In this document: positions 2,698 through 62,413 of the stretch, piece by piece
How positions within the stretch are numbered: position 1 is the stretch's first letter
Layout of the letters: each line of letters begins with the position of its first letter
Assembly: GCA_009746045.1 (NCBI GenBank)
Contig: RPFO01000213.1
Location: forward strand, 11,654,053 to 11,718,052
DNA: 64,000 bases
DNA from: Mesostigma viride
Lineage: Eukaryota; Streptophyta; Mesostigmatophyceae; Mesostigmatales; Mesostigmataceae
Direction of reading: 5' to 3'
The notes under the pieces: generated by a model
Database searches by the model: none
What the model saw: only the letters and a program-made list of their open reading frames with translations
Told to the model about the DNA's origin: nothing
Program-made: the position numbers and the translations under genes

Positions 2698-5600
2698 TCA
2701 CAGTTCGCCGCGCTCGATCCGGGCAAGGTCATACACCTGGCGCATGTTGCCCGAATCTGGGTGCACAAACACCACAAACAGCCAAGCATAACAAATGCCA
2801 CATTATTTAACTCGTCTTTTTACGCCCCACCCATTCCCAAATTTGATTTTTACGACCAAACCTTCTGTCCATACCCCACTGTGTGGCTAAATTAAATGAA
2901 AGTAAGCTACATCACATGACGTGGTACTTCAAAGAAGAACTTCCTCCTCCCTCTCTCCCCCTCCCCTCAACCCTACCCCCTTCCCCTCCACTGTAAAGAA
3001 AAGGCCTGCTGCAAGAAAGACGCGCTTCATAGACGGTGTAATTTTGGTATGATACTGGGATTCGAACACAGGACCTCTAGCACAATGTAACGTGCCTTCC
3101 TTGACTCACCAACCATGTCCCCCTGATCGGCTGTCAGCGGGCACCCACCAAGCAGCAGCAAGTCTTTGAAATGCGATGGAATGGTGTGACAGGGCTGACT
3201 CTGTAGCCAGCCCTTGACGTGAGACAGAATAATGTGACGCAAACCCATGAGCCAGATCACACACAAAGAGCAAGGCGGCAGCCAGTCCTTGCAAAGCAAG
3301 ACGGCAGCCAGTGCTTGAAATGTAAAACAATTGCCAGTCGCTCGGCTGTGATACATTTACGTGACAGGACCACTTACTCGGCAGCAGCCAGCCTTTAGCG
3401 TGCGACAGAATCATGTGGCAGCAGCATGATCTGGCACTCACTCTGCAGCCAGTCCTTGAAGTGCGACAGAATCACGTTCTGGAGCTCCTTCTTGCGCGAC
3501 TCCTCCAGCCCGGCCTCCTTCACCGCCTGCTTCATCTGGGACACCGAGCGCACCTGACGGACCACGCGGCCAGCAAGGAGCATGCAGCATGAGCATTGGC
3601 AAGGATGAGCAAGGATGAGCAAGCATGAGCAAGCATGAGCAAGCATGAGCAAGCATGAGCAAGCATGAGCAAGCATGAGCAAGCATGAGCAAGCATGAGC
3701 AAGCATGAGCAAGCATGAGCAAGCATGAGCAAGCATGAGCAAGCATGAGCAAGCATGAGCAAGCATGAGCAAGCATGAGCAAGCATGAGCAAGCATGAGC
3801 AAGCATGAGCAAGCATGAGCAAGCATGAGCAAGCATGAGCAAGCATGAGCAAGCATGAGCAAGCATGAGCAAGCATGAGCAAGCATGAGCAAGCATGAGC
3901 AAGCATGAGCAAGCATGAGCAAGCATGAGCAAGCATGAGCAAGCATGAGCAAGCATGAGCAAGCATGAGCAAGCATGAGCAAGCATGAGCAAGCATGAGC
4001 AAGCATGAGCAAGCATGAGCAAGCATGAGCAAGCATGAGCAAGCATGAGCAAGCATGAGCAAGCATGAGCAAGCATGAGCAAGCATGAGCAAGCATGAGC
4101 AAGCATGAGCAAGCATGAGCAAGCATGAGCAAGCATGAGCAAGCATGAGCAAGCATGAGCAAGCATGAGCAAGCATGAGCAAGCATGAGCAAGCATGAGC
4201 AAGCATGAGCAAGCATGAGCAAGCATGAGCAAGCATGAGCAAGCATGAGCAAGCATGAGCAAGCATGAGCAAGCATGAGCAAGCATGAGCAAGCATGAGC
4301 AAGCATGAGCAAGCATGAGCAAGCATGAGCAAGCATGAGCAAGCATGAGCAAGCATGAGCAAGCATGAGCAAGCATGAGCAAGCATGAGCAAGCATGAGC
4401 AAGCATGAGCAAGCATGAGCAAGCATGAGCAAGCATGAGCAAGCATGAGCAAGCATGAGCAAGCATGAGCAAGCATGAGCAAGCATGAGCAAGCATGAGC
4501 AAGCATGAGCAAGCATGAGCAAGCATGAGCAAGCATGAGCAAGCATGAGCAAGCATGAGCAAGCATGAGCAAGCATGAGCAAGCATGAGCAAGCATGAGC
4601 AAGCATGAGCAAGCATGAGCAAGCATGAGCAAGCATGAGCAAGCATGAGCAAGCATGAGCAAGCATGAGCAAGCATGAGCAAGCATGAGCAAGCATGAGC
4701 AAGCATGAGCAAGCATGAGCAAGCATGAGCAAGCATGAGCAAGCATGAGCAAGCATGAGCAAGCATGAGCAAGCATGAGCAAGCATGAGCAAGCATGAGC
4801 AAGCATGAGCAAGCATGAGCAAGCATGAGCAAGCATGAGCAAGCATGAGCAAGCATGAGCAAGCATGAGCAAGCATGAGCAAGCATGAGCAAGCATGAGC
4901 AAGCATGAGCAAGCATGAGCAAGCATGAGCAAGCATGAGCAAGCATGAGCAAGCATGAGCAAGCATGAGCAAGCATGAGCAAGCATGAGCAAGCATGAGC
5001 AAGCATGAGCAAGCATGAGCAAGCATGAGCAAGCATGAGCAAGCATGAGCAAGCATGAGCAAGCATGAGCAAGCATGAGCAAGCATGAGCAAGCATGAGC
5101 AAGCATGAGCAAGCATGAGCAAGCATGAGCAAGCATGAGCAAGCATGAGCAAGCATGAGCAAGCATGAGCAAGCATGAGCAAGCATGAGCAAGCATGAGC
5201 AAGCATGAGCAAGCATGAGCAAGCATGAGCAAGCATGAGCAAGCATGAGCAAGCATGAGCAAGCATGAGCAAGCATGAGCAAGCATGAGCAAGCATGAGC
5301 AAGCATGAGCAAGCATGAGCAAGCATGAGCAAGCATGAGCAAGCATGAGCAAGCATGAGCAAGCATGAGCAAGCATGAGCAAGCATGAGCAAGCATGAGC
5401 AAGCATGAGCAAGCATGAGCAAGCATGAGCAAGCATGAGCAAGCATGAGCAAGCATGAGCAAGCATGAGCAAGCATGAGCAAGCATGAGCAAGCATGAGC
5501 AAGCATGAGCAAGCATGAGCAAGCATGAGCAAGCATGAGCAAGCATGAGCAAGCATGAGCAAGCATGAGCAAGCATGAGCAAGCATGAGCAAGCATGAGC

Positions 5601-8600
5601 AAGCATGAGCAAGCATGAGCAAGCATGAGCAAGCATGAGCAAGCATGAGCAAGCATGAGCAAGCATGAGCAAGCATGAGCAAGCATGAGCAAGCATGAGC
5701 AAGCATGAGCAAGCATGAGCAAGCATGAGCAAGCATGAGCAAGCATGAGCAAGCATGAGCAAGCATGAGCAAGCATGAGCAAGCATGAGCAAGCATGAGC
5801 AAGCATGAGCAAGCATGAGCAAGCATGAGCAAGCATGAGCAAGCATGAGCAAGCATGAGCAAGCATGAGCAAGCATGAGCAAGCATGAGCAAGCATGAGC
5901 AAGCATGAGCAAGCATGAGCAAGCATGAGCAAGCATGAGCAAGCATGAGCAAGCATGAGCAAGCATGAGCAAGCATGAGCAAGCATGAGCAAGCATGAGC
6001 AAGCATGAGCAAGCATGAGCAAGCATGAGCAAGCATGAGCAAGCATGAGCAAGCATGAGCAAGCATGAGCAAGCATGAGCAAGCATGAGCAAGCATGAGC
6101 AAGCATGAGCAAGCATGAGCAAGCATGAGCAAGCATGAGCAAGCATGAGCAAGCATGAGCAAGCATGAGCAAGCATGAGCAAGCATGAGCAAGCATGAGC
6201 AAGCATGAGCAAGCATGAGCAAGCATGAGCAAGCATGAGCAAGCATGAGCAAGCATGAGCAAGCATGAGCAAGCATGAGCAAGCATGAGCAAGCATGAGC
6301 AAGCATGAGCAAGCATGAGCAAGCATGAGCAAGCATGAGCAAGCATGAGCAAGCATGAGCAAGCATGAGCAAGCATGAGCAAGCATGAGCAAGCATGAGC
6401 AAGCATGAGCAAGCATGAGCAAGCATGAGCAAGCATGAGCAAGCATGAGCAAGCATGAGCAAGCATGAGCAAGCATGAGCAAGCATGAGCAAGCATGAGC
6501 AAGCATGAGCAAGCATGAGCAAGCATGAGCAAGCATGAGCAAGCATGAGCAAGCATGAGCAAGCATGAGCAAGCATGAGCAAGCATGAGCAAGCATGAGC
6601 AAGCATGAGCAAGCATGAGCAAGCATGAGCAAGCATGAGCAAGCATGAGCAAGCATGAGCAAGCATGAGCAAGCATGAGCAAGCATGAGCAAGCATGAGC
6701 AAGCATGAGCAAGCATGAGCAAGCATGAGCAAGCATGAGCAAGCATGAGCAAGCATGAGCAAGCATGAGCAAGCATGAGCAAGCATGAGCAAGCATGAGC
6801 AAGCATGAGCAAGCATGAGCAAGCATGAGCAAGCATGAGCAAGCATGAGCAAGCATGAGCAAGCATGAGCAAGCATGAGCAAGCATGAGCAAGCATGAGC
6901 AAGCATGAGCAAGCATGAGCAAGCATGAGCAAGCATGAGCAAGCATGAGCAAGCATGAGCAAGCATGAGCAAGCATGAGCAAGCATGAGCAAGCATGAGC
7001 AAGCATGAGCAAGCATGAGCAAGCATGAGCAAGCATGAGCAAGCATGAGCAAGCATGAGCAAGCATGAGCAAGCATGAGCAAGCATGAGCAAGCATGAGC
7101 AAGCATGAGCAAGCATGAGCAAGCATGAGCAAGCATGAGCAAGCATGAGCAAGCATGAGCAAGCATGAGCAAGCATGAGCAAGCATGAGCAAGCATGAGC
7201 AAGCATGAGCAAGCATGAGCAAGCATGAGCAAGCATGAGCAAGCATGAGCAAGCATGAGCAAGCATGAGCAAGCATGAGCAAGCATGAGCAAGCATGAGC
7301 AAGCATGAGCAAGCATGAGCAAGCATGAGCAAGCATGAGCAAGCATGAGCAAGCATGAGCAAGCATGAGCAAGCATGAGCAAGCATGAGCAAGCATGAGC
7401 AAGCATGAGCAAGCATGAGCAAGCATGAGCAAGCATGAGCAAGCATGAGCAAGCATGAGCAAGCATGAGCAAGCATGAGCAAGCATGAGCAAGCATGAGC
7501 AAGCATGAGCAAGCATGAGCAAGCATGAGCAAGCATGAGCAAGCATGAGCAAGCATGAGCAAGCATGAGCAAGCATGAGCAAGCATGAGCAAGCATGAGC
7601 AAGCATGAGCAAGCATGAGCAAGCATGAGCAAGCATGAGCAAGCATGAGCAAGCATGAGCAAGCATGAGCAAGCATGAGCAAGCATGAGCAAGCATGAGC
7701 AAGCATGAGCAAGCATGAGCAAGCATGAGCAAGCATGAGCAAGCATGAGCAAGCATGAGCAAGCATGAGCAAGCATGAGCAAGCATGAGCAAGCATGAGC
7801 AAGCATGAGCAAGCATGAGCAAGCATGAGCAAGCATGAGCAAGCATGAGCAAGCATGAGCAAGCATGAGCAAGCATGAGCAAGCATGAGCAAGCATGAGC
7901 AAGCATGAGCAAGCATGAGCAAGCATGAGCAAGCATGAGCAAGCATGAGCAAGCATGAGCAAGCATGAGCAAGCATGAGCAAGCATGAGCAAGCATGAGC
8001 AAGCATGAGCAAGCATGAGCAAGCATGAGCAAGCATGAGCAAGCATGAGCAAGCATGAGCAAGCATGAGCAAGCATGAGCAAGCATGAGCAAGCATGAGC
8101 AAGCATGAGCAAGCATGAGCAAGCATGAGCAAGCATGAGCAAGCATGAGCAAGCATGAGCAAGCATGAGCAAGCATGAGCAAGCATGAGCAAGCATGAGC
8201 AAGCATGAGCAAGCATGAGCAAGCATGAGCAAGCATGAGCAAGCATGAGCAAGCATGAGCAAGCATGAGCAAGCATGAGCAAGCATGAGCAAGCATGAGC
8301 AAGCATGAGCAAGCATGAGCAAGCATGAGCAAGCATGAGCAAGCATGAGCAAGCATGAGCAAGCATGAGCAAGCATGAGCAAGCATGAGCAAGCATGAGC
8401 AAGCATGAGCAAGCATGAGCAAGCATGAGCAAGCATGAGCAAGCATGAGCAAGCATGAGCAAGCATGAGCAAGCATGAGCAAGCATGAGCAAGCATGAGC
8501 AAGCATGAGCAAGCATGAGCAAGCATGAGCAAGCATGAGCAAGCATGAGCAAGCATGAGCAAGCATGAGCAAGCATGAGCAAGCATGAGCAAGCATGAGC

Positions 8601-11600
8601 AAGCATGAGCAAGCATGAGCAAGCATGAGCAAGCATGAGCAAGCATGAGCAAGCATGAGCAAGCATGAGCAAGCATGAGCAAGCATGAGCAAGCATGAGC
8701 AAGCATGAGCAAGCATGAGCAAGCATGAGCAAGCATGAGCAAGCATGAGCAAGCATGAGCAAGCATGAGCAAGCATGAGCAAGCATGAGCAAGCATGAGC
8801 AAGCATGAGCAAGCATGAGCAAGCATGAGCAAGCATGAGCAAGCATGAGCAAGCATGAGCAAGCATGAGCAAGCATGAGCAAGCATGAGCAAGCATGAGC
8901 AAGCATGAGCAAGCATGAGCAAGCATGAGCAAGCATGAGCAAGCATGAGCAAGCATGAGCAAGCATGAGCAAGCATGAGCAAGCATGAGCAAGCATGAGC
9001 AAGCATGAGCAAGCATGAGCAAGCATGAGCAAGCATGAGCAAGCATGAGCAAGCATGAGCAAGCATGAGCAAGCATGAGCAAGCATGAGCAAGCATGAGC
9101 AAGCATGAGCAAGCATGAGCAAGCATGAGCAAGCATGAGCAAGCATGAGCAAGCATGAGCAAGCATGAGCAAGCATGAGCAAGCATGAGCAAGCATGAGC
9201 AAGCATGAGCAAGCATGAGCAAGCATGAGCAAGCATGAGCAAGCATGAGCAAGCATGAGCAAGCATGAGCAAGCATGAGCAAGCATGAGCAAGCATGAGC
9301 AAGCATGAGCAAGCATGAGCAAGCATGAGCAAGCATGAGCAAGCATGAGCAAGCATGAGCAAGCATGAGCAAGCATGAGCAAGCATGAGCAAGCATGAGC
9401 AAGCATGAGCAAGCATGAGCAAGCATGAGCAAGCATGAGCAAGCATGAGCAAGCATGAGCAAGCATGAGCAAGCATGAGCAAGCATGAGCAAGCATGAGC
9501 AAGCATGAGCAAGCATGAGCAAGCATGAGCAAGCATGAGCAAGCATGAGCAAGCATGAGCAAGCATGAGCAAGCATGAGCAAGCATGAGCAAGCATGAGC
9601 AAGCATGAGCAAGCATGAGCAAGCATGAGCAAGCATGAGCAAGCATGAGCAAGCATGAGCAAGCATGAGCAAGCATGAGCAAGCATGAGCAAGCATGAGC
9701 AAGCATGAGCAAGCATGAGCAAGCATGAGCAAGCATGAGCAAGCATGAGCAAGCATGAGCAAGCATGAGCAAGCATGAGCAAGCATGAGCAAGCATGAGC
9801 AAGCATGAGCAAGCATGAGCAAGCATGAGCAAGCATGAGCAAGCATGAGCAAGCATGAGCAAGCATGAGCAAGCATGAGCAAGCATGAGCAAGCATGAGC
9901 AAGCATGAGCAAGCATGAGCAAGCATGAGCAAGCATGAGCAAGCATGAGCAAGCATGAGCAAGCATGAGCAAGCATGAGCAAGCATGAGCAAGCATGAGC
10001 AAGCATGAGCAAGCATGAGCAAGCATGAGCAAGCATGAGCAAGCATGAGCAAGCATGAGCAAGCATGAGCAAGCATGAGCAAGCATGAGCAAGCATGAGC
10101 AAGCATGAGCAAGCATGAGCAAGCATGAGCAAGCATGAGCAAGCATGAGCAAGCATGAGCAAGCATGAGCAAGCATGAGCAAGCATGAGCAAGCATGAGC
10201 AAGCATGAGCAAGCATGAGCAAGCATGAGCAAGCATGAGCAAGCATGAGCAAGCATGAGCAAGCATGAGCAAGCATGAGCAAGCATGAGCAAGCATGAGC
10301 AAGCATGAGCAAGCATGAGCAAGCATGAGCAAGCATGAGCAAGCATGAGCAAGCATGAGCAAGCATGAGCAAGCATGAGCAAGCATGAGCAAGCATGAGC
10401 AAGCATGAGCAAGCATGAGCAAGCATGAGCAAGCATGAGCAAGCATGAGCAAGCATGAGCAAGCATGAGCAAGCATGAGCAAGCATGAGCAAGCATGAGC
10501 AAGCATGAGCAAGCATGAGCAAGCATGAGCAAGCATGAGCAAGCATGAGCAAGCATGAGCAAGCATGAGCAAGCATGAGCAAGCATGAGCAAGCATGAGC
10601 AAGCATGAGCAAGCATGAGCAAGCATGAGCAAGCATGAGCAAGCATGAGCAAGCATGAGCAAGCATGAGCAAGCATGAGCAAGCATGAGCAAGCATGAGC
10701 AAGCATGAGCAAGCATGAGCAAGCATGAGCAAGCATGAGCAAGCATGAGCAAGCATGAGCAAGCATGAGCAAGCATGAGCAAGCATGAGCAAGCATGAGC
10801 AAGCATGAGCAAGCATGAGCAAGCATGAGCAAGCATGAGCAAGCATGAGCAAGCATGAGCAAGCATGAGCAAGCATGAGCAAGCATGAGCAAGCATGAGC
10901 AAGCATGAGCAAGCATGAGCAAGCATGAGCAAGCATGAGCAAGCATGAGCAAGCATGAGCAAGCATGAGCAAGCATGAGCAAGCATGAGCAAGCATGAGC
11001 AAGCATGAGCAAGCATGAGCAAGCATGAGCAAGCATGAGCAAGCATGAGCAAGCATGAGCAAGCATGAGCAAGCATGAGCAAGCATGAGCAAGCATGAGC
11101 AAGCATGAGCAAGCATGAGCAAGCATGAGCAAGCATGAGCAAGCATGAGCAAGCATGAGCAAGCATGAGCAAGCATGAGCAAGCATGAGCAAGCATGAGC
11201 AAGCATGAGCAAGCATGAGCAAGCATGAGCAAGCATGAGCAAGCATGAGCAAGCATGAGCAAGCATGAGCAAGCATGAGCAAGCATGAGCAAGCATGAGC
11301 AAGCATGAGCAAGCATGAGCAAGCATGAGCAAGCATGAGCAAGCATGAGCAAGCATGAGCAAGCATGAGCAAGCATGAGCAAGCATGAGCAAGCATGAGC
11401 AAGCATGAGCAAGCATGAGCAAGCATGAGCAAGCATGAGCAAGCATGAGCAAGCATGAGCAAGCATGAGCAAGCATGAGCAAGCATGAGCAAGCATGAGC
11501 AAGCATGAGCAAGCATGAGCAAGCATGAGCAAGCATGAGCAAGCATGAGCAAGCATGAGCAAGCATGAGCAAGCATGAGCAAGCATGAGCAAGCATGAGC

Positions 11601-14600
11601 AAGCATGAGCAAGCATGAGCAAGCATGAGCAAGCATGAGCAAGCATGAGCAAGCATGAGCAAGCATGAGCAAGCATGAGCAAGCATGAGCAAGCATGAGC
11701 AAGCATGAGCAAGCATGAGCAAGCATGAGCAAGCATGAGCAAGCATGAGCAAGCATGAGCAAGCATGAGCAAGCATGAGCAAGCATGAGCAAGCATGAGC
11801 AAGCATGAGCAAGCATGAGCAAGCATGAGCAAGCATGAGCAAGCATGAGCAAGCATGAGCAAGCATGAGCAAGCATGAGCAAGCATGAGCAAGCATGAGC
11901 AAGCATGAGCAAGCATGAGCAAGCATGAGCAAGCATGAGCAAGCATGAGCAAGCATGAGCAAGCATGAGCAAGCATGAGCAAGCATGAGCAAGCATGAGC
12001 AAGCATGAGCAAGCATGAGCAAGCATGAGCAAGCATGAGCAAGCATGAGCAAGCATGAGCAAGCATGAGCAAGCATGAGCAAGCATGGGCAAGCATGAGC
12101 AAGCACGGGCAAGCACGGGCAAGCGTGGGCAAGCGTGGGCAAGCGTGGGCAAGCGTGGGCAAGCGTGGGCAAGCGTGGGCAAGCGTGGGCAAGCGTGGGC
12201 AAGCGTGGGCAAGCGTGGGCAAGCGTGGGCAAGCGTGGGCAAGCGTGGGCAAGCGTGGGCAAGCGTGGGCAAGCGTGGGCAAGCGTGGGCAAGCGTGGGC
12301 AAGCGTGGGCAAGCGTGGGCAAGCGTGGGCAAGCGTGGGCAAGCGTGGGCAAGCGTGGGCAAGCGTGGGCAAGCGTGGGCAAGCGTGGGCAAGCGTGGGC
12401 AAGCGTGGGCAAGCGTGGGCAAGCGTGGGCAAGCGTGGGCAAGCGTGGGCAAGCGTGGGCAAGCGTGGGCAAGCGTGGGCAAGCATGTGGCTGCTAATAG
12501 AAGTGCTTAAAGAAGTATTAGCACATGAGCATCTGACGTGGCATGACACGCAGTACCCAGAACCACGCCACCATGCCCCACCCACCTTCATCCCAAATTC
12601 GAAACCGCGGCATCCCGACCATTATGTATGGGATGCCGCGATCCTCAATCGGCTGAGGATAGCCAGCAAGCTTGACAATTCCCCATCAGCGATCATCCCA
12701 TACATGATCCTCATGCTGCGCCTGCGGTGATGCACCTTCTAAAAGAGGGTGTCAACCATGCACCATGTAATAGAGTGCCAATCATGCACCGTGTAATAGA
12801 GCATCAACCATGCACCTTGCAATACAGCATAATACATGCGCCTTCTAAAAGAGTGTCCACCGTGCACCCTGTCATAGAGCGTCAACCATGCACCTTGTAA
12901 AAGTGTCAACCATGCACCTTGTAATAGAGTGTCAACCCACCTTCATCCCAAACATGAGGCCGCAGCAACCCTTACACAAAGTAAGGGGTCGTTATCATTA
13001 CGTAACGGTTGCCGCGATCCTTTATGCTGATGAGGATCGCGAGCAAGCTTGATCCTGCTGCTGTGCAAGCGATCATGCGCCTTCTAATGGAGTGGCCTTC
13101 ATGTTGTGCAAGCCATCATGCACCTTTCCACGGGAGTGTGTCAACCCGATATAACCCTATATGGAGTGTCAACCCACCACATTCCCATAGCGTGAGTGTG
13201 TCAACCCGATATAACCCTATATGGAGTGTCAACCCACCACCTTCCCATAGCGTGAGTGTGTCAACCCGATATAACCCTATATGGAGTGTCAACCCACCAC
13301 ATTCCCATAGCGTGAGTGTGTCAACCCGATATAACCCTATATGGAGTGTCGACCCACCACATTCCCATAGTGTGAGTGTGTCAACCCGATATAACCCTAT
13401 ATGGAGTGTCGACCCACCACCTTCCCATAGCGTGAGTGTGTCAACCCGATATAACCCTATATGGAGTGTCAACCCACCACATTCCCATAGCGTGAGTGTG
13501 TCAACCCGATATAACCCTATATGGAGTGTCAACCCACCACATTCCCATAGTGTGAGTGTGTCAACCCTATAACCCTATATGGAGTGTCGACCCACCACCT
13601 ACTCGAGCACGTGCGCAGCGATGGGCAGACCACCCGCGCACAAGCCACCATCACCACCGTGACCCATCTTCATCCGATCCCATCATTTAGTGCTGTAGTA
13701 GGAAACATCACCGCCCAAATAGGATACAATACTGTACTTTCCAAGCTAAGTGAACGATCTCTCAAACTATCACTGTCCAAATGAATAGGAAACCAACCAT
13801 CTCTCCAACCACCTGGCTCCAGGCGTGCGCGACGATGGGCATATACCATACAGGCAGTCGTGCACCTCCTAATCCATTCTGAGTTAGATGAACCAACCGT
13901 TTGCTCCCGCGAGCACGAGGTGCCGGGCAACCTAAACCTAAACCATGCAACTTCCAGATTAATCCTTGATCACTTCAACCATGCACCTTCCAGATTGAAT
14001 CTTGACTACCTCCACCCACCTTTTGCTCCAGCGCGTGCGCAAACGCCGAGGGCAGGCTGAACGGGTTCATGCGCGTCTGGCCCTCGCCCGCCGCGTTCAT
14101 GCCACGGAAGGGGACCTGCGCACGCAGCAAGAAACGAAGGTGGTGGCCGCGGTGGTCGTGGTGGTGGTGGTGGTGGCAGGAAGAAGAAAGGCGGGCTTAA
14201 CAAAAGGGCCCCACAACACGCGGCGACTCATGATGAAGGGGGCAAGCTCTCACCCGGCAAGCGCCTTCATGACACACACCGCGCGGCTCATTGCGTGCTA
14301 CTGACGCAGGCCTGGAACCAATGAAGGTGATGAGAAAAGAATCTTGTTCGCGATCAAGAAGATACCCGCAGGCCACCCAAATGCTCACAAGGAAGGGAAA
14401 ACCGCACGCCACCCAAACACTCACAAGGAAGGGAAGGGCTCTGCGCTTCTGGGGGGCATCTGAGCTTCAGGGGCATCTGTGCCTCTGCTATTCCATGATG
14501 TCCCTCAAGTGGGGATTCCATAGGACCCTCCCCATGAGCCAAGCCATCAGCACTCACGATGAAGGGGATGAAGCGTTCGGTGGGCATGACAGTCATCTCG

Positions 14601-21328: not shown

Positions 21329-22193
21329 TTGGCGACCAGAAGGATACCAGCTGATTCGTCGCAAAAAGGTGCGTCTAACGAACTCTTTTTTGCCTGGAAC
21401 AAAGCCGTCACTGAAACGGTGCGGCCAACAGGCGCCCGGCTTGCAAGGTGCAAACCCGGCCCTGTAGCCACACTGTTTTCAGTGACGGCCTCCCTCCCAT
21501 GGCTGTTTCATAGCGAGGCTAGGCCAGGATACGAACACCCATTGGCAATGTGGCGCTGGCACGGGCCAGCCCCTTTGGATGGGCCAGTAGTTACCCCGGG
21601 GCCTAGTCTCCTACAAAAAGGAAAACCCTTTAACAGGCGCTGGGACTATGGAATAGTCCGTGCCACACACGGTGATTGGAAATCGCCCAGACACCTTTTA
21701 CAACACCAGCCGACATTACATGGACAAGGATGTAATGTGGCTTTAACATCTCAGCTCCCCCTAGATGCAAAGGTAGCCAGCCGCGATGACTTACTAACAC
21801 GTTTTCTCTCCTTGTTTCCGTCCCCTCCTCACCACCAACGCAGGGCCGGTGCTACAACTCCATGGCTACATACACACCCGCTACCACAGCAGACAAGGTC
21901 AGCGGAAAAATCATATGGAGCCCAGCCATGGTTGGAATAAGGTGGCGAGGGAGCAAGCTTTTGAGGTATCAGGCATCCACCCAGGCAAATTCATCGAGGT
22001 CCCCCGGCGCACCCCTCCTCCAGCGGCCGCCGGTGCCTCCCCGGCAGAGGCCGACGCAGAACCGACACAGGACAACTCCGATGCGCTGGCCGTCACCACC
22101 CCGCACCCCAACCTCCCGTCCGATCTGGGCCTCTCCGACATGGAAGCGTCGGCGACACCGGCTACCGGCAAGCGCCGCGACCGCGACCCCTGA
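21329..22193 (+). pseudogene. ORF1 region of the L1 element, two overlapping frames
   Basis: Frame one is open 21329-21940 without an early ATG (first ATG about 21548). Frame two is open 21849-22193 and ends 38 bp before ORF2. The second frame is rich in Pro, Ala and acidic residues and ends in KRRDRDP. The pair could be one ORF1 broken by a frameshift, or two cistrons. I see no zinc knuckle or clear RNA-binding fold. Confidence 0.4.
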
Positions 22194-22231
22194 AACCAGA
22201 TAAGACCTCTGCCTTCCCACGACATCATCCT

Positions 22232-52093: not shown

Positions 52094-52223
52094 GGAGTCC
52101 GCACCGTGTTTTTCGACGTACCTTGAGGTAAGCTTGTGCCTCTTAGCCTTTGTTGTCCAAATTCGAGCCATTTCTGCGTATGCTGCACTCCCAACATGAT
52201 TTGCCAGGGTTACAAATGCATCG
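52094..52223 (+). CDS. Tentative upstream exons of the FHA-parvulin gene
   Basis: Two small exon candidates, 52094-52127 and 52208-52223, have acceptable AG/GT borders (CTTCAG, GTAAGC, TTGCCAG, GTAGGT). In the phase that joins 52504 they read SPHRVFRRTLR and VTNAS. The first would need a still earlier exon for the start codon. The evidence is splice motif and phase only. Confidence 0.3.
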
Positions 52224-52503
52224 GTAGGTATCTTTCTCGACAACCAGCCTACGATGTTGTTTTCAAACGTGCATGGATTAGCACACTCGGCATCTCCTGT
52301 TGTGCACCTACAGTATCCCTCCTATCCTGCTGCCTTCTCAGTCCTTCTGCCAGGTGACAATTTGATATTTTACTGACGTGCCTGCTGCGTATCACCACTT
52401 GATGCCTTGTTTAGTCTCAGGAAGGTTGCTAACGATTCAAATTTGTGAACTGTTTACACATTGTTGAAATGCGGGCGATTGTTTTCTTTCCTGGCACCAC
52501 CAG

Positions 52504-55500
52504 GTCTACGAAGAACGCAAGCTGGTCGCAACTATAAGGATTGATACCAGATCCCATTTTCTGGTTGGAAGGTATGGGGCCTCGTCTGGCCTTGCGATGT
52601 TCCTGACCTCTGGTTGTCCTCTCTGGTTTTTCCTAGAACCTTCGCAAGGCGCAATTGCTGCGTGCTGCGTATTGTTTATCTGCCAACTATGAAATCCGAC
52701 CTTTTCTGAGGAGTTATTGCTCTCGCAAGACCTATTCTTTTCCTTTTTGCACTCATACGCCTTCTCTGCCGCCGCTTTAAGTTGATTTTGCCTCCTTCCC
52801 CACACTGCTGCGTTGCCTTGCTTCCGCTGGCTTGCACTGCCTTGCGGTCAACCAATGCACATGAGTCACTACTATCATGCCGTGTAGTATCCAACATTTG
52901 ATTTGACACACGCATGAATTCGGTATGCCTAGCCTCCTGCTCCCTTTTCCAATCACCCTCAAACGACCTCATTTTATTACTTCCCATGACCCTCATATGA
53001 CAATCCAACCATGCCTGGCTGGCACCTGGCAGGAACGCGCACGACTGTGACATCGTCTTTGAGCCCCACTCCAAGGTGTCGAGGACGGTGCGTCCATGCC
53101 CTTGACAGTTACCCGTAAGGTGTCCTAGCATAGCAGGTATTCCAATGTCCAGTATGGTGCATCCGTGACTGTTGCTTCAACAATGGTTGGGCTCCCGTTT
53201 CCTAGACTCTTTATGAAGGGTACGGCTTGGGAGGGAACTAGTGAAAGAATGACATTACTAAACGCCGTTGAGCAACAATGGTTTTGCGACGTTGAAGGAA
53301 AAGCGACGCTAATTTCTCTGCTGGTGTGCTTTCAGCTTGACAATTAAGTCAAGAGAGAGTAGGCTGAAGCATGTGCCTGCACAGACCGCAGCACTGCGGA
53401 AGAAAAAGACTTTGACGGGCTTAATTTTGGCAGCATTACTACACGCGCTTTAGCAATGTGGTAATCAAGGTGCTGCGGAATCTGGTGGGTTGATAGCCAC
53501 AGGTCTCACCGTTGCCTTCATAGAACCTCCTTGTGGCAGTCGATAGGTATCCACAAGCAAGGGATTGCATAGCACATCATGGAAAGGGAGCTAGCTAGCT
53601 GGCGGGCGGGCGGGCGGGTGTGCGGGCCAGCAGGCGGGCGGGCGGGAGGGCTGCTTAGTGCAAACGTATACAATGCGTGGCATTCCGAGGTATGTCCTGT
53701 ATGATGCTGCTTCATGTTAAGATGCAAAAGTTCTTTTGTTATGTCCTCCCTGCCTACCTGCCATGTTCGCTTCACGACGTTGTTCTGGAATCCACAAACG
53801 GAGATGGTATACGTAAATTCTACTAGTTATTCGTATACTATCGCCATATCATAATGTTGGGTATCCGTTGATTGAGAAGCGCGAGGTAAGGGAATCAGCG
53901 GCATGTGACAATTGTCATGTTGCATTAACCGAATTCCTGCCTCGGAATGGCCCTTTTCCTGTAGGGACAAGGGTCCTAGGTGCATTCATTTAAGTTCCTT
54001 CAGAGAGTGCTTCAAGCGGTTGGTTGGGGGGAAGAAAGATCCAGGCTGCACGTATAGGGTCGAGTTGGAAGAATAGGGCAATAACCCGTTTGGAAGAACA
54101 GGGTAATACCCCGTTTGGAAGAATAGGGCAATAACCCGTTTGGAAGAATAGGGCAATAACCCGTTTGGAAGAATAGGGCAATAACCCGTTTGGAAGAATA
54201 GGGCAATAACCTGTTTGGAAGAATAGGGCAATAACACGTTTGGAAGAACAGGGTAATAACCAGTTTGGAAGAATAGGGCAATAACCAGTTTGGAAGAATA
54301 GGGCTATAACCCTTTTGGAAGAATAGGGCAATGACCCGTTTGGAAGAATAGGGCAATAACCTGTTGGCATTAGGAGATGATGTCGTTGAGGTTAACATTT
54401 TCCCTATCATTCTTGATCCTTTTCTAACACGGGTTCATTGCCTTTTAAATTCGTGCCTTCTGGACAGGCCGTGGCATACTGGCCGTCTTACCGGCCGCAA
54501 TCTTCTCTAAGCGCCGAACTGTAAAGCCCCAAGCCCTCATTGCTTACCTCGCTGCCATGCTCTCCTCTTCCTGTTGCTTTTTTCCCCCTTCCCCCCCTGT
54601 GTGCGGTCCTCAGCATGCGGCCATCGTCCACCACACGAACGGAGAGGTCTACGTGATAGACCTCAAATCTGGTAATCCCCTCCTCCCTTTCCCTCGCCCC
54701 TTTCTCCTGCCATGCCATAATTGTTCTTTGCCAACGACTCTTGAGTCAAGTTTTGTCTCGATCACTGTAGCTTCTTCTGCTCGTGTGTGTACATCCCAGA
54801 GTTATATGAGCCCAGAACCCATGGATCATTTACAAGGGCTGAACAAGCAGGTGTTTTCAGCTCATCCCCTTCACATCATACGGCACTGGTGCTGCATATA
54901 CTAAAGTTTAATCTAATATTGATGTTTAATCTGAATTCTGTCACCTCATAACTTGTATACTGTAACATCCTTTCCGTGCGTTTCAATCTTCTCAGTCCTG
55001 CTTCCCTGGCTTTCTCCCCGTTCCCCTCCAAGTCTGCCCCTTGGTGTTGACACCCGCTTCTTTGTAGCTTTGCCTCCTCCTCACTAAAAGCGCAGACCTT
55101 CCCTTTGTTTTCTTGCAACCTGTACTTGCCTGTTGCAGGTAGCCCCGGTTACGTATGTCATCCTGAAGTCGGGGCATATATCTAGTTGGTGTCACCAGAT
55201 CTCATGAGTGGGTTGTAGCGTATGATGGCATAACGGCTGTTTATTTTCTGTTTCCCTTCCCGCCTGTGTCTGGTGTCTATCGCAGCGCCGTAGTACAGCA
55301 CTATTTCGGGGGGGGGTAAGCTTCATACGATGTTGCACTACTCATGACACTCGATGTTGCACTACTCATGTGCCTGCCTCACCACCCTGTCCTGTGGCAA
55401 TGCCATGTGCTCCCTCATACCCAAACTCGCTGCACCAGGCCACGGCACGTATCTCAACGGCGATCAAGTGCCCGCGAACAAGCCGACGAGGCTCGTAGGT

Positions 55501-58500
55501 AAGAGAAAATGGGAGCAAAGTGCTTGACCTCGTAATTCGCATGGGACTGGTGCCACCAGGCACTTCTGGACTAGTACCAGCAGGCACTGGTGTACTAGAG
55601 CCACTAGACACCAGTGTGGCTTCCTACCTAGAGACCTAGAGAGCTGGAACCTACTTGTAGAGGTGTGGGCGCTACCTACCTAGGGACCTAGAGAGCTGGA
55701 ACCTACTTGTAGAGGTGTGGGCGCTACCTACCTAGGGACCTAGAGAGCTGGAACCTACTTGTAGAGGTGTGGGCGCTACCTACCTAGGGACCTAGAGACC
55801 TGGAACTTACTTGTAGATGTGTGTGCGCTACTTACCTAGGGACCTAGAGACCTGCAACTTACTTGTATAGGAATCGCCACTTTCAAAGGGCGCGCAGGTC
55901 TCCACGAGAGGTGTAGGAGTTTATCACTGCACCAGGTAGTGCAGTAACTGCATGCCTATTAAAGCTGAAGGTTAAGAGGGATCGGCTAATGTGCCAAGCA
56001 AGTGTTTTCTGCAAGCGCGATCGAGGATGCATGTTGGCTAAATGCGCCAAGAAAGTGTTGGCTAAAGAGGGGCTGGCATGGAGACGTATGCTGACTGCCT
56101 ATGCGATCGGGCCACCTGGCAATCCGGCGCGCAGACGGCTACAAGCTCGAGTTTGCAAAGGACACGGGGATAACCTTCACCGTGCGTGTGCTGGCGGGAA
56201 AGATCCCTGGCAGCGAGCAGCCCAAGGGCACCCTGACGCTGCTGTTGAAGGAGCCTGTGATGGTGACTGCGCTGGGGAGGGACAGGGGAACCTCCCAGGG
56301 GGATGATGAGGGCGTGCCGGGCGCTGGTAGCCATGGCAGGAACGGTGACGGTGGAGCCGAGTCGCCGCAGGAGGGCGAGCGAGCCGCGAAACGGCGACAT
56401 GTGGCGGACTCGCGGGGCCACGGTCATGTAAGGCAATGCTGCTCAAATCGTACGAGAAGATTAGGGGCTTCGCAAGGCAGCCCCTGTGAAGGGGTTGGAT
56501 TCCCCTTGACTCTAGGGCTACTGCCTGCCGTCACGTGTGCTACTGTCCGAGTGTGAGGAGGGGGTATGACGACCGGTCCAAGTGTGAGGAGGGGGGACGC
56601 GCGAAATGGGGTAGAGAATATGGGCGAGTGGGGATGTGCCTGTGAATGGGGTACGAAAGGCAGGTGGATGTGCAAATGGGTAATTAGGTAAATCGGCAAA
56701 TGGGTTGGAATTTGCGGCAGACCGGGAGTAGTTGTGTGGAGTGTGTTCAGGGGCAGGTGCGAGGTGCTGAGTGTGCCCAAGGATGGGTTGGACATGTACC
56801 CAAGTAGAGGGTACCGGAGGATCAGGCAGGGATCCAACGGATCATGTTGTGCTGTATGGCTATGCAGGAGACTTATGCAGGAGAAAAACCTTCGTTGTTG
56901 ATTTTGTCGTTGGGGCCAAGTCTTTTTGGTATAGGGCGATGGCACACGTGTGGGGGGGGGAAGGGCGGGTAGAATACTTGGGTTCAAGAACGCTTGGTTT
57001 CGGGAACGCAGTGCAGGCTGAGATGAGTCGTGCAGAGCAGTGGTGCCATCTCATCTGGCATCTGTATATGTCTAGCCCGTCGACCTGTAGATTTCCTGCC
57101 CATCGACCCGCATGTATCCAGGCCCTGAGGTGGTTTATGTAACAGCGGGCTTGACATGGTCTGGATGTTCCAGATTTGGAGGCCTGCGCTGGTTGTCGCA
57201 TCGATAGAGTAACGGGGACTGCTCCGGTCCCGTTGTGGCAACGGCTGCTCTGCAGTCGTGGCAGCAGCTGCTCTGTAATTATGAGGGGGAAGTTGGGTGC
57301 TCTTCAGAGACAGGAACTGCTGTTCTATTGATATTGCAGCAGCTCCTCTATAGTAATGGGATCTGCTGCTCGACAGATAGGGAACTGCCGTTCTATTGAT
57401 ATTGCAGCAGCTCCTCTATAGTAATGGGATCTGCTGCTCGACAGATAGGGAACTGCCGTTCTATTGATATTGCAGCAGCTCCTCTATAGTAATGGGATCT
57501 GCTGCTCGACAGATAGGGAACTGCCGTTCTATTGATATTGCAGCAGCTCCTCTATAGTTATGGGATCTGCTGCTCGACAATTAGGGAACTGCCGTTCTAT
57601 TGATATTGCAGCAGCTCCTCTATAGTAATGGGATCTGCTGCTCGACAATTAGGGAACTGCCGTTCTATTGATATTGCAGCAGCTTCTCTATAGTAATGGG
57701 ATCTGCTGCTCGACAATTAGGGAACTGCCGTTCTATTGATATTGCAGCAGCTTCTCTATAGTAATGGGATCTGCTGCTCGACAATTAGGGAACTGCCGTT
57801 CTATTGATATTGCAGCAGCTCCTCTATAGTAATGGGATCTGCTGCTCGACAGATAGGGAACTGCCGTTCTATTGATATTGCGGCAGCTCCTCTATAGTAA
57901 TGGGATCTGCTGCTCGACAGATAGGGAACTGCCGTTCTATTGATATTGCAGCAGCTCCTCTATAGTAATGGGATCTGCTGCTCGACAGATAGGGAACTGC
58001 CGTTCTATTGATATTGCGGCAGCTCCTCTATAGTAATGGGATCTGCTGCTCGACAGATAGGGAACTGCTGTTCTATTGATATTGCAGCAGCTCCTCTATA
58101 GTAATGGGATCTGCTGCTCGACAGATAGGGAACTGCCGTTCTATTGATATTGCGGCAGCTCCTCTATAGTAATGGGATCTGCTGCTCGACAGATAGGGAA
58201 CTGCCGTTCTATTGATATTGCGGCAGCTTCTCTATAGTAATGGGATCTGCTGCTCGACAGATAGGGAACTGCCGTTCTATTGATATTGCAGCAGCTCCTC
58301 TATAGTAATGGGATCTGCTGCTCGACAGATAGGGAACTGCCGTTCTATTGATGTTGCGCCAGCTCCTCTATAGTAATGGGATCTGCTGCTCGACAGATAG
58401 GGAACTGCCGTTCTATTGATATTGCAGCAGCTCCTCTATAGTAATGGGATCTGCTGCTCGACAGATAGGGAACTGCCGTTCTATTGATATTGCGGCAGCT

Positions 58501-61500
58501 CCTCTATAGTAATGGGATCTGCTGCTCGACAGATAGGGAACTGCCGTTCTATTGATATTGCGGCAGCTTCTCTATAGTAATGGGATCTGCTGCTCGACAG
58601 ATAGGGAACTGCCGTTCTATTGATATTGCAGCAGCTCCTCTATAGTAATGGGATCTGCTGCTCGACAGATAGGGAACTGCCGTTCTATTGATGTTGCGCC
58701 AGCTCCTCTATAGTAATGGGATCTGCTGCTCGACAGATAGGGAACTGCCGTTCTATTGATATTGCGGCAGCTCCTCTATAGTAATGGGATCTGCTGCTCG
58801 ACAGATAGGGAACTGCCGTTCTATTGATGTTGCGCCAGCTCCTCTATAGTTATGGGATCTGCTGCTCGACAGATAGGGAACTGCCGTTCTATTGATGTTG
58901 CGGCAGCTTCTCTATAGTAATGGGATCTGCTGCTCGACAGATAGGGAACTGCCGTTCTATTGATATTGCGGCAGCTTCTCTATAGTAATGGGATCTGCTG
59001 CTCGACAGATAGGGAACTGCCGTTCTATTGATATTGCGGCAGCTCCTCTATAGTAATGGGATCTGCTGCTCGACAGATAGGGAACTGCCGTTCTATTGAT
59101 GTTGCAGCAGCTTCTCTATAGTAATGGGATCTGCTGCTCGACAGATAGGGAGCTGCTTCTCTATCACTGTGATAGCAGACCATCGAGTGCTCTAATGGGA
59201 ACTGCTGCCGTACTGTTCAGAGGATGGCTTTTTTATTGCTATGACTCATTCGGGGGTGATATGATTGGATCCAGGGGTTGCTGTGGGTGATGGGGGGCCA
59301 TGCTGGGCGGATCTTTCTTTCCTGTAACAAACATGCGAGTGTCGACTGCGACATTACCTTGGATATGGGGACGGCTGCATGGATTCGAAGTGACATTGGG
59401 TTGGGCCTTTTGTTTTCCTCGACAGAAGGGCCACACAGTCACCTCAACAAGTACGGAAACGGTACGGGAGAGGGTTGCCTTGCGAAGCCGCGGCTGGCAG
59501 ATTTAATTTGATTTAATGGGAACCATGCTGGGTTGAATCGTTTTTCGACAGGAGGAGGGCCATGCGCCGGCCTCAGGCAAGGTTGTGCGGTGCCGGCACT
59601 TGCTGCTCAAGCATGTGGAGTCCAAGAACCCGGTGACTCATCGCGTCACCGACACGAGGTCGGCTGACCGGCCGGATAAGGTGAGTAGGGACGTATACTG
59701 TGGTGGTGGTATATGAACTTGACAATGCGCAGCGCGTGGCTGACAAACAGTCGGCGGACAGGCCGGATGAGGTAAATAACAAAGGGGGGCGGAAGTTTGT
59801 AGTGCGGTGGTATTTAACAAGAACAAAATGCCACGCGTGACCGACAGGAGGTCCGCCGACAGGCCGGCAAGGTGAGTATCGCTCAGGGCGCTGGTATCGT
59901 TGATTGATGGCAGTTCATTGGAATTCCAACTTTTCTGTTGTGGCAGTTACTGACATGGTTACTGTATGGGTTCCATGCTTTGTGCCATGTGCGCGTCCAC
60001 CCATCCACCCTGTGCGGCTTCCTTGCATGGGGCCTCCTTGATGAATGCTGCTGGCTGGTGGGAGCAGTGGCAGGTGACCAGAACCAAGGAGGAAGCTGTG
60101 GCGGAGATAGAGGGTAAGAGCCGCTGCTTGTTGTTATAATGTAATTATGCTGGGAGTGAGGAGGAAGCCGCGGCAGAGATGGAGGGTAAGAGCCGGTGCT
60201 TGTTCTGTTTTTCTATTTCAAGGATGCTGGGATCAAGTCGGAGCTGAGGCTATGTCTGACATGTTTATCCGCTCGGATCAATGCGGGTGAAGGTGGTGTC
60301 ATGCGGCTGGCTGCCTGGCGGTCTTCCAACACCGGAGCACCCAGCATCTGCAATGTCATGAGGTTACATGCCCTTTTCTTTGCCTCCTGATACACCCTAT
60401 CCATACACAGGTTTCCTGTCTGGGACGTATTTTAATATCGTGTTGCGCGGTTTTTATCTGGCCACCTGCTCTGAATGCAATTAATGAAGTAACCCACAGT
60501 TCCTGGCGGAGCTGCGGTTTTAGGAATATGTAGTATTAAGAATACTTGCTTAATCCAGCGTTGCTGGCGGGGCTGCCGTTCCGTAAGTATCAGGAGCGTA
60601 AGTATTATTCAGAACACCTTGCTCATGTTTGTTAGTGCCTAACCAATAATAGTTTAACTCTAACTAAACACACTACCTGGCGAAGCTGAACACTGCATAG
60701 CGCGTTACGTCTTGCCACCTCTGTGCTGATAATTTGGTCACCGTAGCGAAGAAGGCTACCTGTTGGCGCTGAGGATTCTGAAGTAGCGATAACACCTGGA
60801 TCCTGTGCATCGGTTCTCGTCAAACTGTTATAGGGTTGCTGAACTAAGCATATTACCTGGCATATTACCTGGCTCTCATCGGCTTATCCCTAGCTAAACC
60901 TGCTTTTCAATCTATTTGAGACAGACTACCTGGCGGAGATTCAATTGATGGTGGCTGAGGCCAAGGGACCCTGCCTTTGCTAAACCTGCCCTATTCATTC
61001 GACACCTGCCTCGTACCCAAACGATTTAATTGACTATCTGGCGGATCTTTGTATTTTTAACTGACTGGACCACCCTGCTCTAAAAAACCTGCTCTAGTCA
61101 AACCTGCCTCGTGCCCTTATTCAACAGATCACCTAGCAGAGCTGCGTTCTGTGGCGGAGGCGGGGCCAACGAAGCCTGCCGTAGCTAACAGACGAGCCAA
61201 TCACCAACCTGCCCCTTCTATCTGACGCCTGCCTTGAACCCTAACGGAAACAGACTATCTAGCAGCGTTGCGTTTAAGTGTGGAGAAGGGCCAACCGAGC
61301 CTGCTCTAAACAACTCGCTTTAGTCAAACCTGCCCCATCTATGCGAGACCTGCTGTCTACCCTAACTAAATCAGACTATCTAGCGGAGCTGCGTTCGATG
61401 GTGGAGGAGGGCGCATCCGGGGAGGAGATCGAGTCTCGTTTCTCTCAGATGGCGTCGCAGATAAGCGACTGCAAGAGCTCCACGCGGGGTGGGGACTTGG

Positions 61501-62413
61501 GCGAGTTTGGGCCCAAGAAGATGCAACCACCTTTCGAGAAGGCCGCGTGAGTGTATGAGATTGCTTTAATCATTCACATAGTCTTCTACATCGCGCCAAC
61601 TGATTTTATGTAGCTAGGATTGCCCCTACTCTTTGAGAAGGCTTTGTCAGTAGAAAGCCTCGTGAGAACTTAACATTGCACCCGTGGTTCGAAAAGGCCT
61701 CCGGTGATTATATATTTGTTGCGTGCTAAGAATTTGGTTTAGGCTCGTCTGTTAGAAATCCAACCAGTTATCATGGTAAAGTGGCTGCCTCGCAATAGGT
61801 AGGTTGTGCACTTGGACTTTACCTTTACCTCGAACTCTACGAACATCTGTTCCCCAGGTACGGATGCCCTATCTATCGTTACCGGCGTCAGAAATGTTTT
61901 CCCCAGTTCAGGCGGCAAGGTGCAGCAAGTTTGCTTTTACCTAGTACGTGAAAACGGCAGGTAAAAGCTAAACGACTTTGCATTTACCTTGAACCTCAAT
62001 TCAGGTGCTGTCCAGCGTCCATGAGCTCCGTCATGGTTACAATCGATCACGTAAGGCTTACGGGCAGGTTTACCTTTCCCTTTCACTCCGGCATGCGCAT
62101 TAAGTCATTTCGCAAGACCTCCCTAATGCTAAATGGGTGATGTGCTACGTGCCACCTGCTAGGCTTCAAATAAATGCTACAGCTGACGACATGCGTGCCA
62201 GGTGTAACGTGTAGTCAGTCAGCGGCCTCACTAATCAACGAGCTTTGCGCGCACTCTGCCTTGCTATGGACACTAAGTGGAACATTCGTCTCGTTTGCTT
62301 TCTCGCAAACTTGTACTCATCGATGCTGTCGCAGGTTTGCGCTGGCTGTGGGAGATATTAGCCCGATTGTCCACACTCCAAATGGGGTGCACATCATACT
62401 GCGCACGGGCTAG
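52504..62413 (+). CDS. FHA domain fused to Pin1-type parvulin isomerase (N-terminus unresolved)
   Basis: Nine exons: 52504-52571, 53033-53087, 54614-54671, 55439-55498, 56135-56427, 59552-59680, 60074-60113, 61375-61546 and 62335-62413. They total 954 nt in frame and give 317 aa. The FHA domain spans about the first 100 residues: SHFLVGRNAHDCDIVFEP, KVSRTHAAIVHH, VYVIDLKSGHGTYLNG and NKPTRLVDGYKLEF, with the Gly-Arg, Ser-Arg-x-His and His-Gly-Thr-x-x-Asn-Gly motifs of phosphothreonine binding. A Gly/charged linker follows (exon 5). The parvulin domain is complete: VVRCRHLLLKH, VTRTKEEAVAEIE, SQISDCKSSTRGGDLGEF, KKMQPPFEKA and NGVHIILRTG. Human Pin1 active-site equivalents His59, Cys113, Met130 and His157 are present. 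The Pin1 Arg68-Arg69 pair appears as Lys-Asn. Pin1's WW domain is replaced by FHA. Expected role: phosphopeptide-targeted prolyl isomerisation. Confidence 0.92.
54062..54365. repeat. 25-bp array (GTTTGGAAGAATAGGGCAATAACCC), about 12 units
   Basis: Degenerate units spaced 25 bp apart lie in the intron before the FHA exon at 54614. Variants include GAACAGGG and AATAACCAG. Confidence 0.95.
55626..55870. repeat. 52-bp array, about 5 units
   Basis: Units start CTACCTAGGGACCTAGAGA and repeat every 52 bp (for example 55681 and 55733), decaying to the right. They follow the FHA exon at 55439. Confidence 0.95.
56428..57307. other. Intron sequence before the 68-bp satellite
   Basis: No exon is recognised. 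A partial copy of the dispersed GCCTGCGCTGGTTGTC unit lies at about 57181-57208. Confidence 0.5.
57308..59155. repeat. 68-bp satellite, about 27 units, before the first parvulin exon
   Basis: Units are 68 bp (for example TTCTATTG at 57323 and 57391). Each contains CTGCTGCTCGACAGATAGGG, which resembles the acceptor of the next exon (TTTTCGACAG then GAGGAGGGCC). Variant units (CAGCAG, CGGCAG, GCGCCAG; GACAGAT or GACAATT) occur in patterns suggesting multi-unit duplications. Confidence 0.97.
59415..59452 (+). repeat. Ghost copy of the first parvulin exon 5' edge
   Basis: CCTCGACAGAAGGGCCACAC resembles the true acceptor region at 59541-59563, TTCGACAG followed by GAGGAGGGCCATGC. Confidence 0.6.
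59727..59880 (+). repeat. Two ghost copies of parvulin exon 3' edge with donors
   Basis: The exon at 59552-59680 ends CGGCTGACCGGCCGGATAAG followed by GTGAGT. Copies end at 59771 (GGACAGGCCGGATGAG then GTAAAT) and 59871 (GACAGGCCGGCAAG then GTGAGT). Both extend about 43 nt back into the exon sequence. Confidence 0.9.
60156..60206 (+). repeat. Ghost copy of the exon ending at 60113, with donor and intron start
   Basis: The real edge GGAGGAAGCTGTGGCGGAGA...GTAAGAGCCGCTGCTTG is repeated about 72 bp downstream as GGAGGAAGCCGCGGCAGAGA...GTAAGAGCCGGTGCTTG. The copy spans both sides of the splice site. Confidence 0.92.
60490..61292 (+). repeat. At least seven ghost copies of the exon 61375 5' edge
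   Basis: The exon starts ACTATCTAGCGGAGCTGCG after TCAG. Upstream copies lie at about 61248-61290, 61122-61167, 61029-61050, 60919-60961, 60661-60690, 60557-60580 and 60493-60518. Several keep an ACAG acceptor. Pyrimidine-rich CCTGCC segments recur between them, so the duplicated unit included the end of the intron. Confidence 0.9.
61615..61715 (+). repeat. Ghost copies of the exon ending at 61546
   Basis: The exon end CCTTTCGAGAAGGCCGC followed by GTGAGT recurs as CTCTTTGAGAAGGCTTTGTC (about 61630), AGAAAGCCTCGTGAGAAC (about 61654) and TGGTTCGAAAAGGCCTCCGG (about 61686). Confidence 0.7.

What the first reader, a model, noticed from the sequence alone, without database searches (positions are those of the whole stretch)
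2757..61715. Exon-edge ghosts: introns of three genes carry tandem decayed copies of their own splice junctions
In TBCCD1, the FHA-parvulin gene and, more weakly, the F-box gene, the intron next to an exon repeatedly contains copies of that exon's last or first 15-50 nt together with the adjoining GT or AG. The copies are outside the coding frame and some have lost the splice site. In the clearest sets similarity falls with distance from the real exon. The pattern occurs at 3' edges (TBCCD1 exons 2, 5, 6; parvulin exons) and 5' edges (TBCCD1 exon 4; parvulin exons). This looks like a genome-wide mode of intron growth by local junction duplication, with a reservoir of decoy splice sites. Known ideas such as intron gain by tandem duplication are related, but I know of no description of this edge-focused, repeated pattern.
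Basis: partly seen in the sequence, partly recalled or inferred. Interest (0 to 1): 0.92.

Follow-up and report, generated by a model that had tools for sequence, protein, structure and literature searches.

The report
Introns carry copies of exon edges
In the green alga Mesostigma viride, many introns hold fading tandem copies of the end of the neighbouring exon together with its splice site; they look like by-products of small DNA duplications that happened to straddle the exon border, and they give a record of how introns grow.

Summary
The window is from Mesostigma viride. Copies of exon edges with the adjoining GT or AG lie in the adjacent introns of TBCCD1 and the FHA-parvulin gene; the F-box gene is marginal. 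Chaperonin and MCM genes elsewhere show the same: 23 of 78 edges there, 33 of 112 with the window, match their own intron better than every unrelated intron. Controls: 3 of 112 reverse-complement probes, 1 of 65 far-end probes. The units are head-to-tail tandem duplications, mostly 50-150 bp. Similarity falls with distance at 8 of 11 multi-copy edges. 46 of 58 copies keep GT/AG; using them would give a stop or frameshift in 45 of 46.

Edge targeting is not established: at 95% identity, arrays span edges in 4 of 19 cases, 3.2 expected; at 90%, 11 of 31, 5.5 expected. Best reading: introns duplicate locally; duplications across a junction are tolerated, and the conserved exon keeps old copies recognisable. 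The copied exon share is usually small, perhaps limited by splicing. Ten library searches listed no description of this as a route of intron growth.

The parts
2698..20679 (-). TBCCD1 gene, exons 20679-20068, 18328-17564, 15842-15702, 14758-14558, 14115-14020, 3553-3442, 2756-2698
   Evidence: assembled by splice sites and frame; JGI Mesvir1 12277 identical over the first six exons; last exon supported by Chlorokybus P0002
14846..15289 (-). four tandem copies of the 5' edge of TBCCD1 exon 4 with upstream intron, starting at 14917, 15061, 15160, 15289; AG kept in three, AC in the farthest
   Evidence: identity 86, 82, 78, 71% with rising distance
16804..17563 (-). copies of the 3' edge of TBCCD1 exon 2: 29-bp array next to the exon plus weaker copies starting at 17190, 17072, 16952, 16844
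13587..13937 (-). copies of the 3' edge of TBCCD1 exon 5 starting at 13937, 13830 and 13617
3145..3416 (-). copies of the 3' edge of TBCCD1 exon 6 starting at 3416, 3331, 3235, 3182; the first does not cross the junction, two have TT instead of GT
14226..14459 (-). two weak copies of the 3' edge of TBCCD1 exon 4 (score 14 each)
   Evidence: does not beat all unrelated introns
51883..62413 (+). FHA-parvulin gene, exons 51883-51941, 52094-52127, 52504-52571, 53033-53087, 54614-54671, 55439-55498, 56135-56427, 59552-59680, 60074-60113, 61375-61546, 62335-62413
   Evidence: JGI 12280 (P0010) skips 61375-61546 and reads the last exon in another frame; homologues P0011 and P0013 contain that exon
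59730..59878 (+). two tandem copies of the 3' edge of parvulin exon 8 (unit about 105 bp), GT kept
   Evidence: the farther copy is the more similar
60159..60204 (+). copy of the 3' edge of parvulin exon 9, 72 bp away, GT kept
60487..61298 (+). six fading copies of the 5' edge of parvulin exon 10 with upstream intron; AG in four, AC in two
61602..61715 (+). two weak copies of the 3' edge of parvulin exon 10, one by score, one only in the hand-chosen alignment
   Evidence: (z 3.8)
27444..36005 (+). F-box gene, exons 27444-27908, 28076-28106, 29752-29939, 34470-34588, 35498-36005
   Evidence: translation equals P0092
30506..30529 (+). marginal copy of the 3' edge of F-box exon 3

Best explanation
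Introns of Mesostigma viride undergo frequent small head-to-tail tandem duplications, mostly 50-150 bp. When a duplicated block straddles a splice junction, the spliceosome goes on using the original outer site (the upstream donor or the downstream acceptor), so the protein is unchanged and the extra exon edge plus splice site becomes intron. Repetition at the same place adds copies next to the exon and pushes older ones inward, where they decay neutrally. The intron grows from its ends. Because the exon does not change, it is a fixed reference that keeps old copies recognisable, which makes the pattern look edge-focused. Blocks carrying much exon are rare, I infer because a copy with full exon context would compete as a splice site. 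Shown: tandem units, junction crossing, occurrence in unrelated genes, decay, unproductive use, small exon share in most cases; locality for one probe. Inferred: continued use of the original site, selection on the exon share, the duplication chemistry.
For: Own intron beats all unrelated introns at 33 of 112 edges; reverse-complement probes 3 of 112, far end of the same exon 1 of 65, far half of the same intron 6 of 92. A recent case: the CCT gene on C1468 has a 76-bp unit (about 20 exon and 57 intron bases), the real edge and three copies, 97% identical over the aligned 31-35 nt. Whole units align, intron part included, most clearly in parvulin introns 8 and 9 and TBCCD1 intron 3. 8 of 11 multi-copy edges fade with distance. 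Copies differ from the exon mostly independently: 62 coincident differences against 43 expected, 32 of the 62 with the same base (52%; about 42% expected), so a minority may be copies of copies. Duplications also lie in intron interiors: 20 of 31 arrays at 90% or more do not span an edge, and two copies of one CCT gene about 2.1% apart differ by a 43-bp tandem duplication inside an intron. Exon share: mean 28 nt in 19 edges against 56 under random placement, 0 of 20000 simulations as low.
Against: Unadjusted, edges are spanned more often than random placement predicts (9 of 19 against 2.6; 11 of 31 against 5.5), so some edge preference may remain. The small exon share could be a property of the duplication process, and the 29-bp array at TBCCD1 exon 2 is an exception (18 exon bases of 29; the filter dropped it). 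TBCCD1 introns 5 and 6 and parvulin intron 8 do not fade with distance. No transcript data show which site is used. Exon borders of the CCT and MCM genes are modelled from Pfam matches and a 20-junction splice-site matrix.
Confidence: 0.7

Rival explanations
1. Exon edges are mutational hot spots: something about splice junctions (G-rich donors, R-loops, transcription-linked breaks) makes duplication start there, so introns grow specifically from junctions.
For: Edge-spanning arrays exceed random placement: 9 of 19 against 2.6 expected, 11 of 31 against 5.5. Donors are hit more than acceptors: 23 of 56 against 10 of 56. Copies are mostly independent of each other.
Against: No clear excess at 95% identity: 4 of 19 against 3.2, 2 of 10 against 1.2. 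The one longer tandem duplication that differs between two gene copies lies inside an intron.
Confidence: 0.2
2. The copies are functional: alternative exons or regulatory decoy splice sites kept by selection.
For: 46 of 58 copies keep GT or AG; acceptor AG bases are kept in 39 of 42.
Against: Use of an intact copy gives a stop in 39, a frameshift in 6 and an open frame in 1 of 46. Splice dinucleotide bases are kept about as often as neighbours (donor 76 of 94 against 677 of 880 exon bases), and the donor G alone is kept in only 31 of 47 copies; these counts include 9 copies of the doubtful MCM_C2067 repeat. Copies mostly decay with distance.
Confidence: 0.04
3. A dispersed repeat or introner that carries exon-like sequence.
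For: The genome is repeat-rich (PMC6947507 passages).
Against: The TBCCD1 exon 4 edge probe matches only its own locus and its nearest copy (that search skips very common words); probes match their own intron, not introns of other genes.
Confidence: 0.01
4. Chance similarity of GC-rich, low-complexity sequence.
For: The weakest catalogue entries (score 14-16) are near chance; the MCM_C2067 copies at one edge look like a minisatellite.
Against: Reverse-complement and far-end controls at chance level, mismatched introns, shuffles.
Confidence: 0.01
5. Copies arose through RNA: reverse transcription of splicing intermediates reinserted next to the exon.
For: Copies hold exon end plus intron start, as a precursor RNA would.
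Against: Head-to-tail repeats of one genomic block in register (C1468) need only DNA tandem duplication.
Confidence: 0.03

Closest known systems
Intron gain by tandem genomic duplication of exonic AGGT (review PMC3443670, passages; Hellsten 2011 seen there as a reference)
   Same: A small tandem duplication of exon sequence whose extra copy is removed by splicing
   Different: There a new intron is born inside an exon; here the block spans an existing junction and an existing intron gets longer, repeatedly
Tandem duplication and intron sliding in Drosophila genes (PMC2891723, passages)
   Same: Local duplication near splice sites; premature stops in the spliced-out copy
   Different: Concerns new intron positions in coding sequence; the passages shown describe no arrays of decayed junction copies
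Human introns from tandem arrays (Zhuo 2007; seen only as a reference title in PMC3488318; content recalled)
   Same: Tandem arrays containing splice sites within introns
   Different: As recalled, concerns origin of alternatively spliced introns, not growth of existing introns from their edges
[quoted passage not shown] not held; content recalled)
   Same: Internal duplications can include exon-intron borders
   Different: Aimed at intron creation and protein change
Intronic minisatellites (general knowledge)
   Same: Head-to-tail units, copy-number change, decay
   Different: Here the unit includes the exon edge and splice site, and the exon serves as a fixed reference

Membership tests
Local tandem duplication / minisatellite array | units head to tail on the same strand | tested here: met
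   reverse-complement control 3 of 112
Local tandem duplication / minisatellite array | copies confined to one locus | tested here: met
   one probe only
Intron gain by tandem genomic duplication | a new intron created within an exon, splice sites from a duplicated AGGT | tested here: not met
   the duplicated block spans an existing junction; the intron is already there
Introner / transposon-borne intron | similar copies in many genes | tested here: not met
   (one probe); mismatched introns
Exon duplication (alternative cassette exon) | a complete exon with both splice sites in frame | tested here: not met
   exon part 14-58 nt in 37 of 38 aligned copies, 82 nt at 65% identity in one, though 96-150 nt of exon were offered in 37 of 38; 45 of 46 intact copies unproductive
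Exon duplication (alternative cassette exon) | inclusion in transcripts | not testable with these tools
   no RNA data held
Edge-targeted duplication process | recent duplications concentrated at junctions beyond random placement | tested here: inconclusive

The most novel reading that the evidence does not exclude
Introns in this lineage grow by a conveyor belt at their splice junctions: junctions are duplication hot spots, each event stamps a new junction copy between the exon and older copies, the exon share is usually held to about a third of the block or less, and the row of copies is a datable record of intron growth and a standing supply of cryptic splice sites.
Probability: 0.2. Interest if true: 0.85.

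Novelty: new variant of a known kind. Interest (0 to 1): 0.58.

Why it matters
How introns get longer is often credited to transposons and is hard to see because intron sequence decays. Here the conserved exon edge is a fixed standard against which duplications can be recognised and ranked by age, at 33 of 112 edges tested. That makes rates of intron growth, tolerance of duplicated splice sites and the exon context a splice site needs measurable in one genome. It also warns annotators: the public TBCCD1 model reads on into the first copied edge, and the public parvulin model skips the exon that has copies on both sides.

Tried and rejected
Rejected: dispersed repeat (one probe), chance, alternative exons. 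A window-only scan gave scores of 18 or more at 6 of 33 edges, 6.4% of 1209 intron-interior probes (many of the top-listed hits lie in the copy arrays themselves), 3.3% of 1850 intergenic, 0.4% of 540 LINE and 2.7% of 264 exon-interior probes. A lag-based scan gave 9 edge-spanning against 5 interior arrays at 85-90% identity but 2 against 10 at 95%; it merges and splits arrays unevenly and I rely instead. A blastn self-comparison missed an obvious array (C1468) and was discarded. The edge enrichment shrank to the stricter layout.

Left out of counts: the gene MCM_C2067 (its copies at one edge look like a minisatellite; 9 of the 68 copies come from that edge). In one search, three edges with the nearest copy more than 220 nt away were left out of the exon-share test (19 of 22 used), its null starts at 12 exon bases, and its low-complexity filter drops the 29-bp TBCCD1 exon 2 array. 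In one search, 6 of 118 edges (all in the window) had too little exon or intron to test. Only consecutive Pfam exon matches with small profile gaps became introns: 22 in 9 of 11 CCT genes and 17 in 6 of 7 MCM genes; 34 further single edges entered only. TBCCD1 intron 5 (10.5 kb) was left out. Proteasome and actin matches are mostly long single open frames and were not used; L055-L059 were fetched and not analysed. I searched no other eukaryote genome, so nothing is known here about other species.
Full report
What the window is. The three genes match JGI Mesostigma viride proteins: TBCCD1 (12277, identical over the first six exons), an At4g00755-like F-box protein (12278) and an FHA-parvulin protein (12280) (with sequences). 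The genome held as G000 has 439.9 Mb in 2243 contigs and the window lies on C1. Exon models were built from splice sites, frame and these proteins. The JGI TBCCD1 model runs past the exon 6 donor into the intron and misses the last exon (2756-2698), which Chlorokybus P0002 supports; the JGI parvulin model skips exon 61375-61546, which homologues P0011 and P0013 contain.

The copies are there. Probes of exon edge plus intron start scored z>5 above shuffles at 7 of 38 edges. The catalogue has 39 rows, 30 of them crossing the junction, 23 of these 30 with GT or AG in the right place (cut-off 14, the weakest near chance; 5 of the 9 non-crossing rows are intron-only units of a 14-bp repeat). Alignment of units shows that the intron part repeats as well: about 105 bp three times at parvulin intron 8, 110-155 bp at TBCCD1 intron 3, about 120-125 bp between the nearest copies at parvulin intron 9 (in the other arrays the intron part is weaker, and its unit limits were chosen by eye). 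The TBCCD1 exon 4 edge finds only itself and its nearest copy in the whole genome (the parvulin edge could not be tested).

It is genome-wide. I fetched 11 CCT chaperonin genes and 7 MCM genes located by Pfam searches and modelled 39 introns. A 60-nt edge probe was compared with up to 700 nt of its own intron and of about 40-50 introns of other genes. The own intron beat all others at 33 of 112 edges: CCT 10 of 44, MCM 13 of 34, window 10 of 34; I reckon about 2.5 by chance. About a fifth of the 33 win by one or two points only. By the listing the hits lie in 5 of 9 CCT genes and 6 of 6 MCM genes with modelled introns. Donors 23 of 56, acceptors 10 of 56. Scores of 18 or more: 21 of 112 edges, 0 of 63 exon-interior probes. 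Controls: reverse complement 3 of 112, far half of the same intron 6 of 92, far end of the same exon 1 of 65.

How it works. The CCT gene on C1468 shows a recent case: 76 bp, about 20 of exon and 57 of intron, the real edge and three head-to-tail copies, 97% identical in the aligned part. Of 11 edges with three or more copies, similarity falls with distance at 8 (perfectly at 5), rises at 2 and is flat at 1, the flat one looking like a minisatellite. Copies of one edge share somewhat more differences than independence predicts: 62 against 43, 32 of 62 the same base (52%, about 42% expected) (MCM_C2067 excluded). So copies are mostly separate descendants of the real edge; a minority may be copies of copies, or the exon itself may have changed. 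With few copies per edge this is only moderate evidence for repeated copying from the edge. Of 58 copies 46 keep the splice dinucleotide; use would cause a stop in 39, a frameshift in 6 and leave one open frame. Dinucleotide bases are kept about as often as their neighbours (donor 76 of 94, acceptor 39 of 42; exon bases 677 of 880 and 314 of 401), though the donor G alone is kept in only 31 of 47, with 9 of the 47 from the doubtful repeat. There is no clear sign that decoys are purged or preserved.

Is it aimed at edges? Arrays of 90% identity or more span an edge in 9 of 19 cases against 2.6 under random placement (P=0.0003), at 95% 2 of 10 against 1.2. With 34 more edges and a stricter layout it is 11 of 31 against 5.5 (P=0.013) at 90%, 14 of 41 against 9.1 (0.038) at 85%, 17 of 47 against 11.0 (0.017) at 80%, 26 of 68 against 16.5 (0.004) at 70%, and 4 of 19 against 3.2 (0.40) at 95%. 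A copy of an exon edge has one changing partner, a copy inside an intron has two, so edge copies should stay recognisable up to twice as long. Ordinary duplication within introns continues: two versions of the C887 CCT gene, about 2.1% apart, differ by a 43-bp tandem duplication in an intron interior, one of six indels of 6 bp or more in about 4.8 kb aligned. I therefore do not claim targeting, and do not exclude it.

What needs explaining. The exon part of the unit is short: mean 28 nt, at most 58, and at most 0.37 of the distance to the nearest copy found, in 19 of 22 edges (three with the nearest copy beyond 220 nt were left out), against a mean of 56 nt if placement were random. Distances may span more than one unit, which lowers the ratio, and the 29-bp array at TBCCD1 exon 2 is an exception with 18 exon bases. 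My inference is that duplications carrying more exon give the second site full exon context and are removed by selection. A property of the duplication process is the alternative.

Literature. Two Mesostigma genome papers were seen in passages: PMC6947507 gives a mean intron of 1142 bp with 30.1% of intron space in repeats, and none of the 11 passages shown mentions junction copies; PMC7027972 has no occurrence of 'intron' in its main text. Tandem genomic duplication as intron gain is well known (PMC3443670 and PMC2891723, passages). Ten library searches listed, by title and start of abstract, nothing that describes repeated junction duplication as intron growth; the library lacks most subscription papers, and Gao and Lynch 2009 is not held.

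Noticed in passing
window 3599-12487: An 8.9-kb array of a 10-bp unit (GCAAGCATGA) fills most of TBCCD1 intron 5 and ends about 45 bp from exon 6.
   Followed up: no
window 21965-26650: A stop-to-stop reading frame of 1561 aa with endonuclease and reverse transcriptase domains: a LINE-type retrotransposon between TBCCD1 and the F-box gene.
   Followed up: no
window 30976-31865: Neighbouring 5-bp arrays CCAGA, GGTCT and CCAGA in the F-box intron.
   Followed up: no
window 1-1050 and 46131-47100: Similar coding-like sequence at two places, perhaps two copies of a mobile element; seen by eye in the frames.
   Followed up: no
L060 around 3545-6670: A 3.1-kb insertion, with CTCCGT at both ends by eye, in a CCT intron on C1641 and absent on C887.
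   Followed up: partly
TBCCD1 3442-2698 and parvulin 61375-61546: Public JGI gene models look wrong or incomplete next to copied edges.
   Followed up: yes
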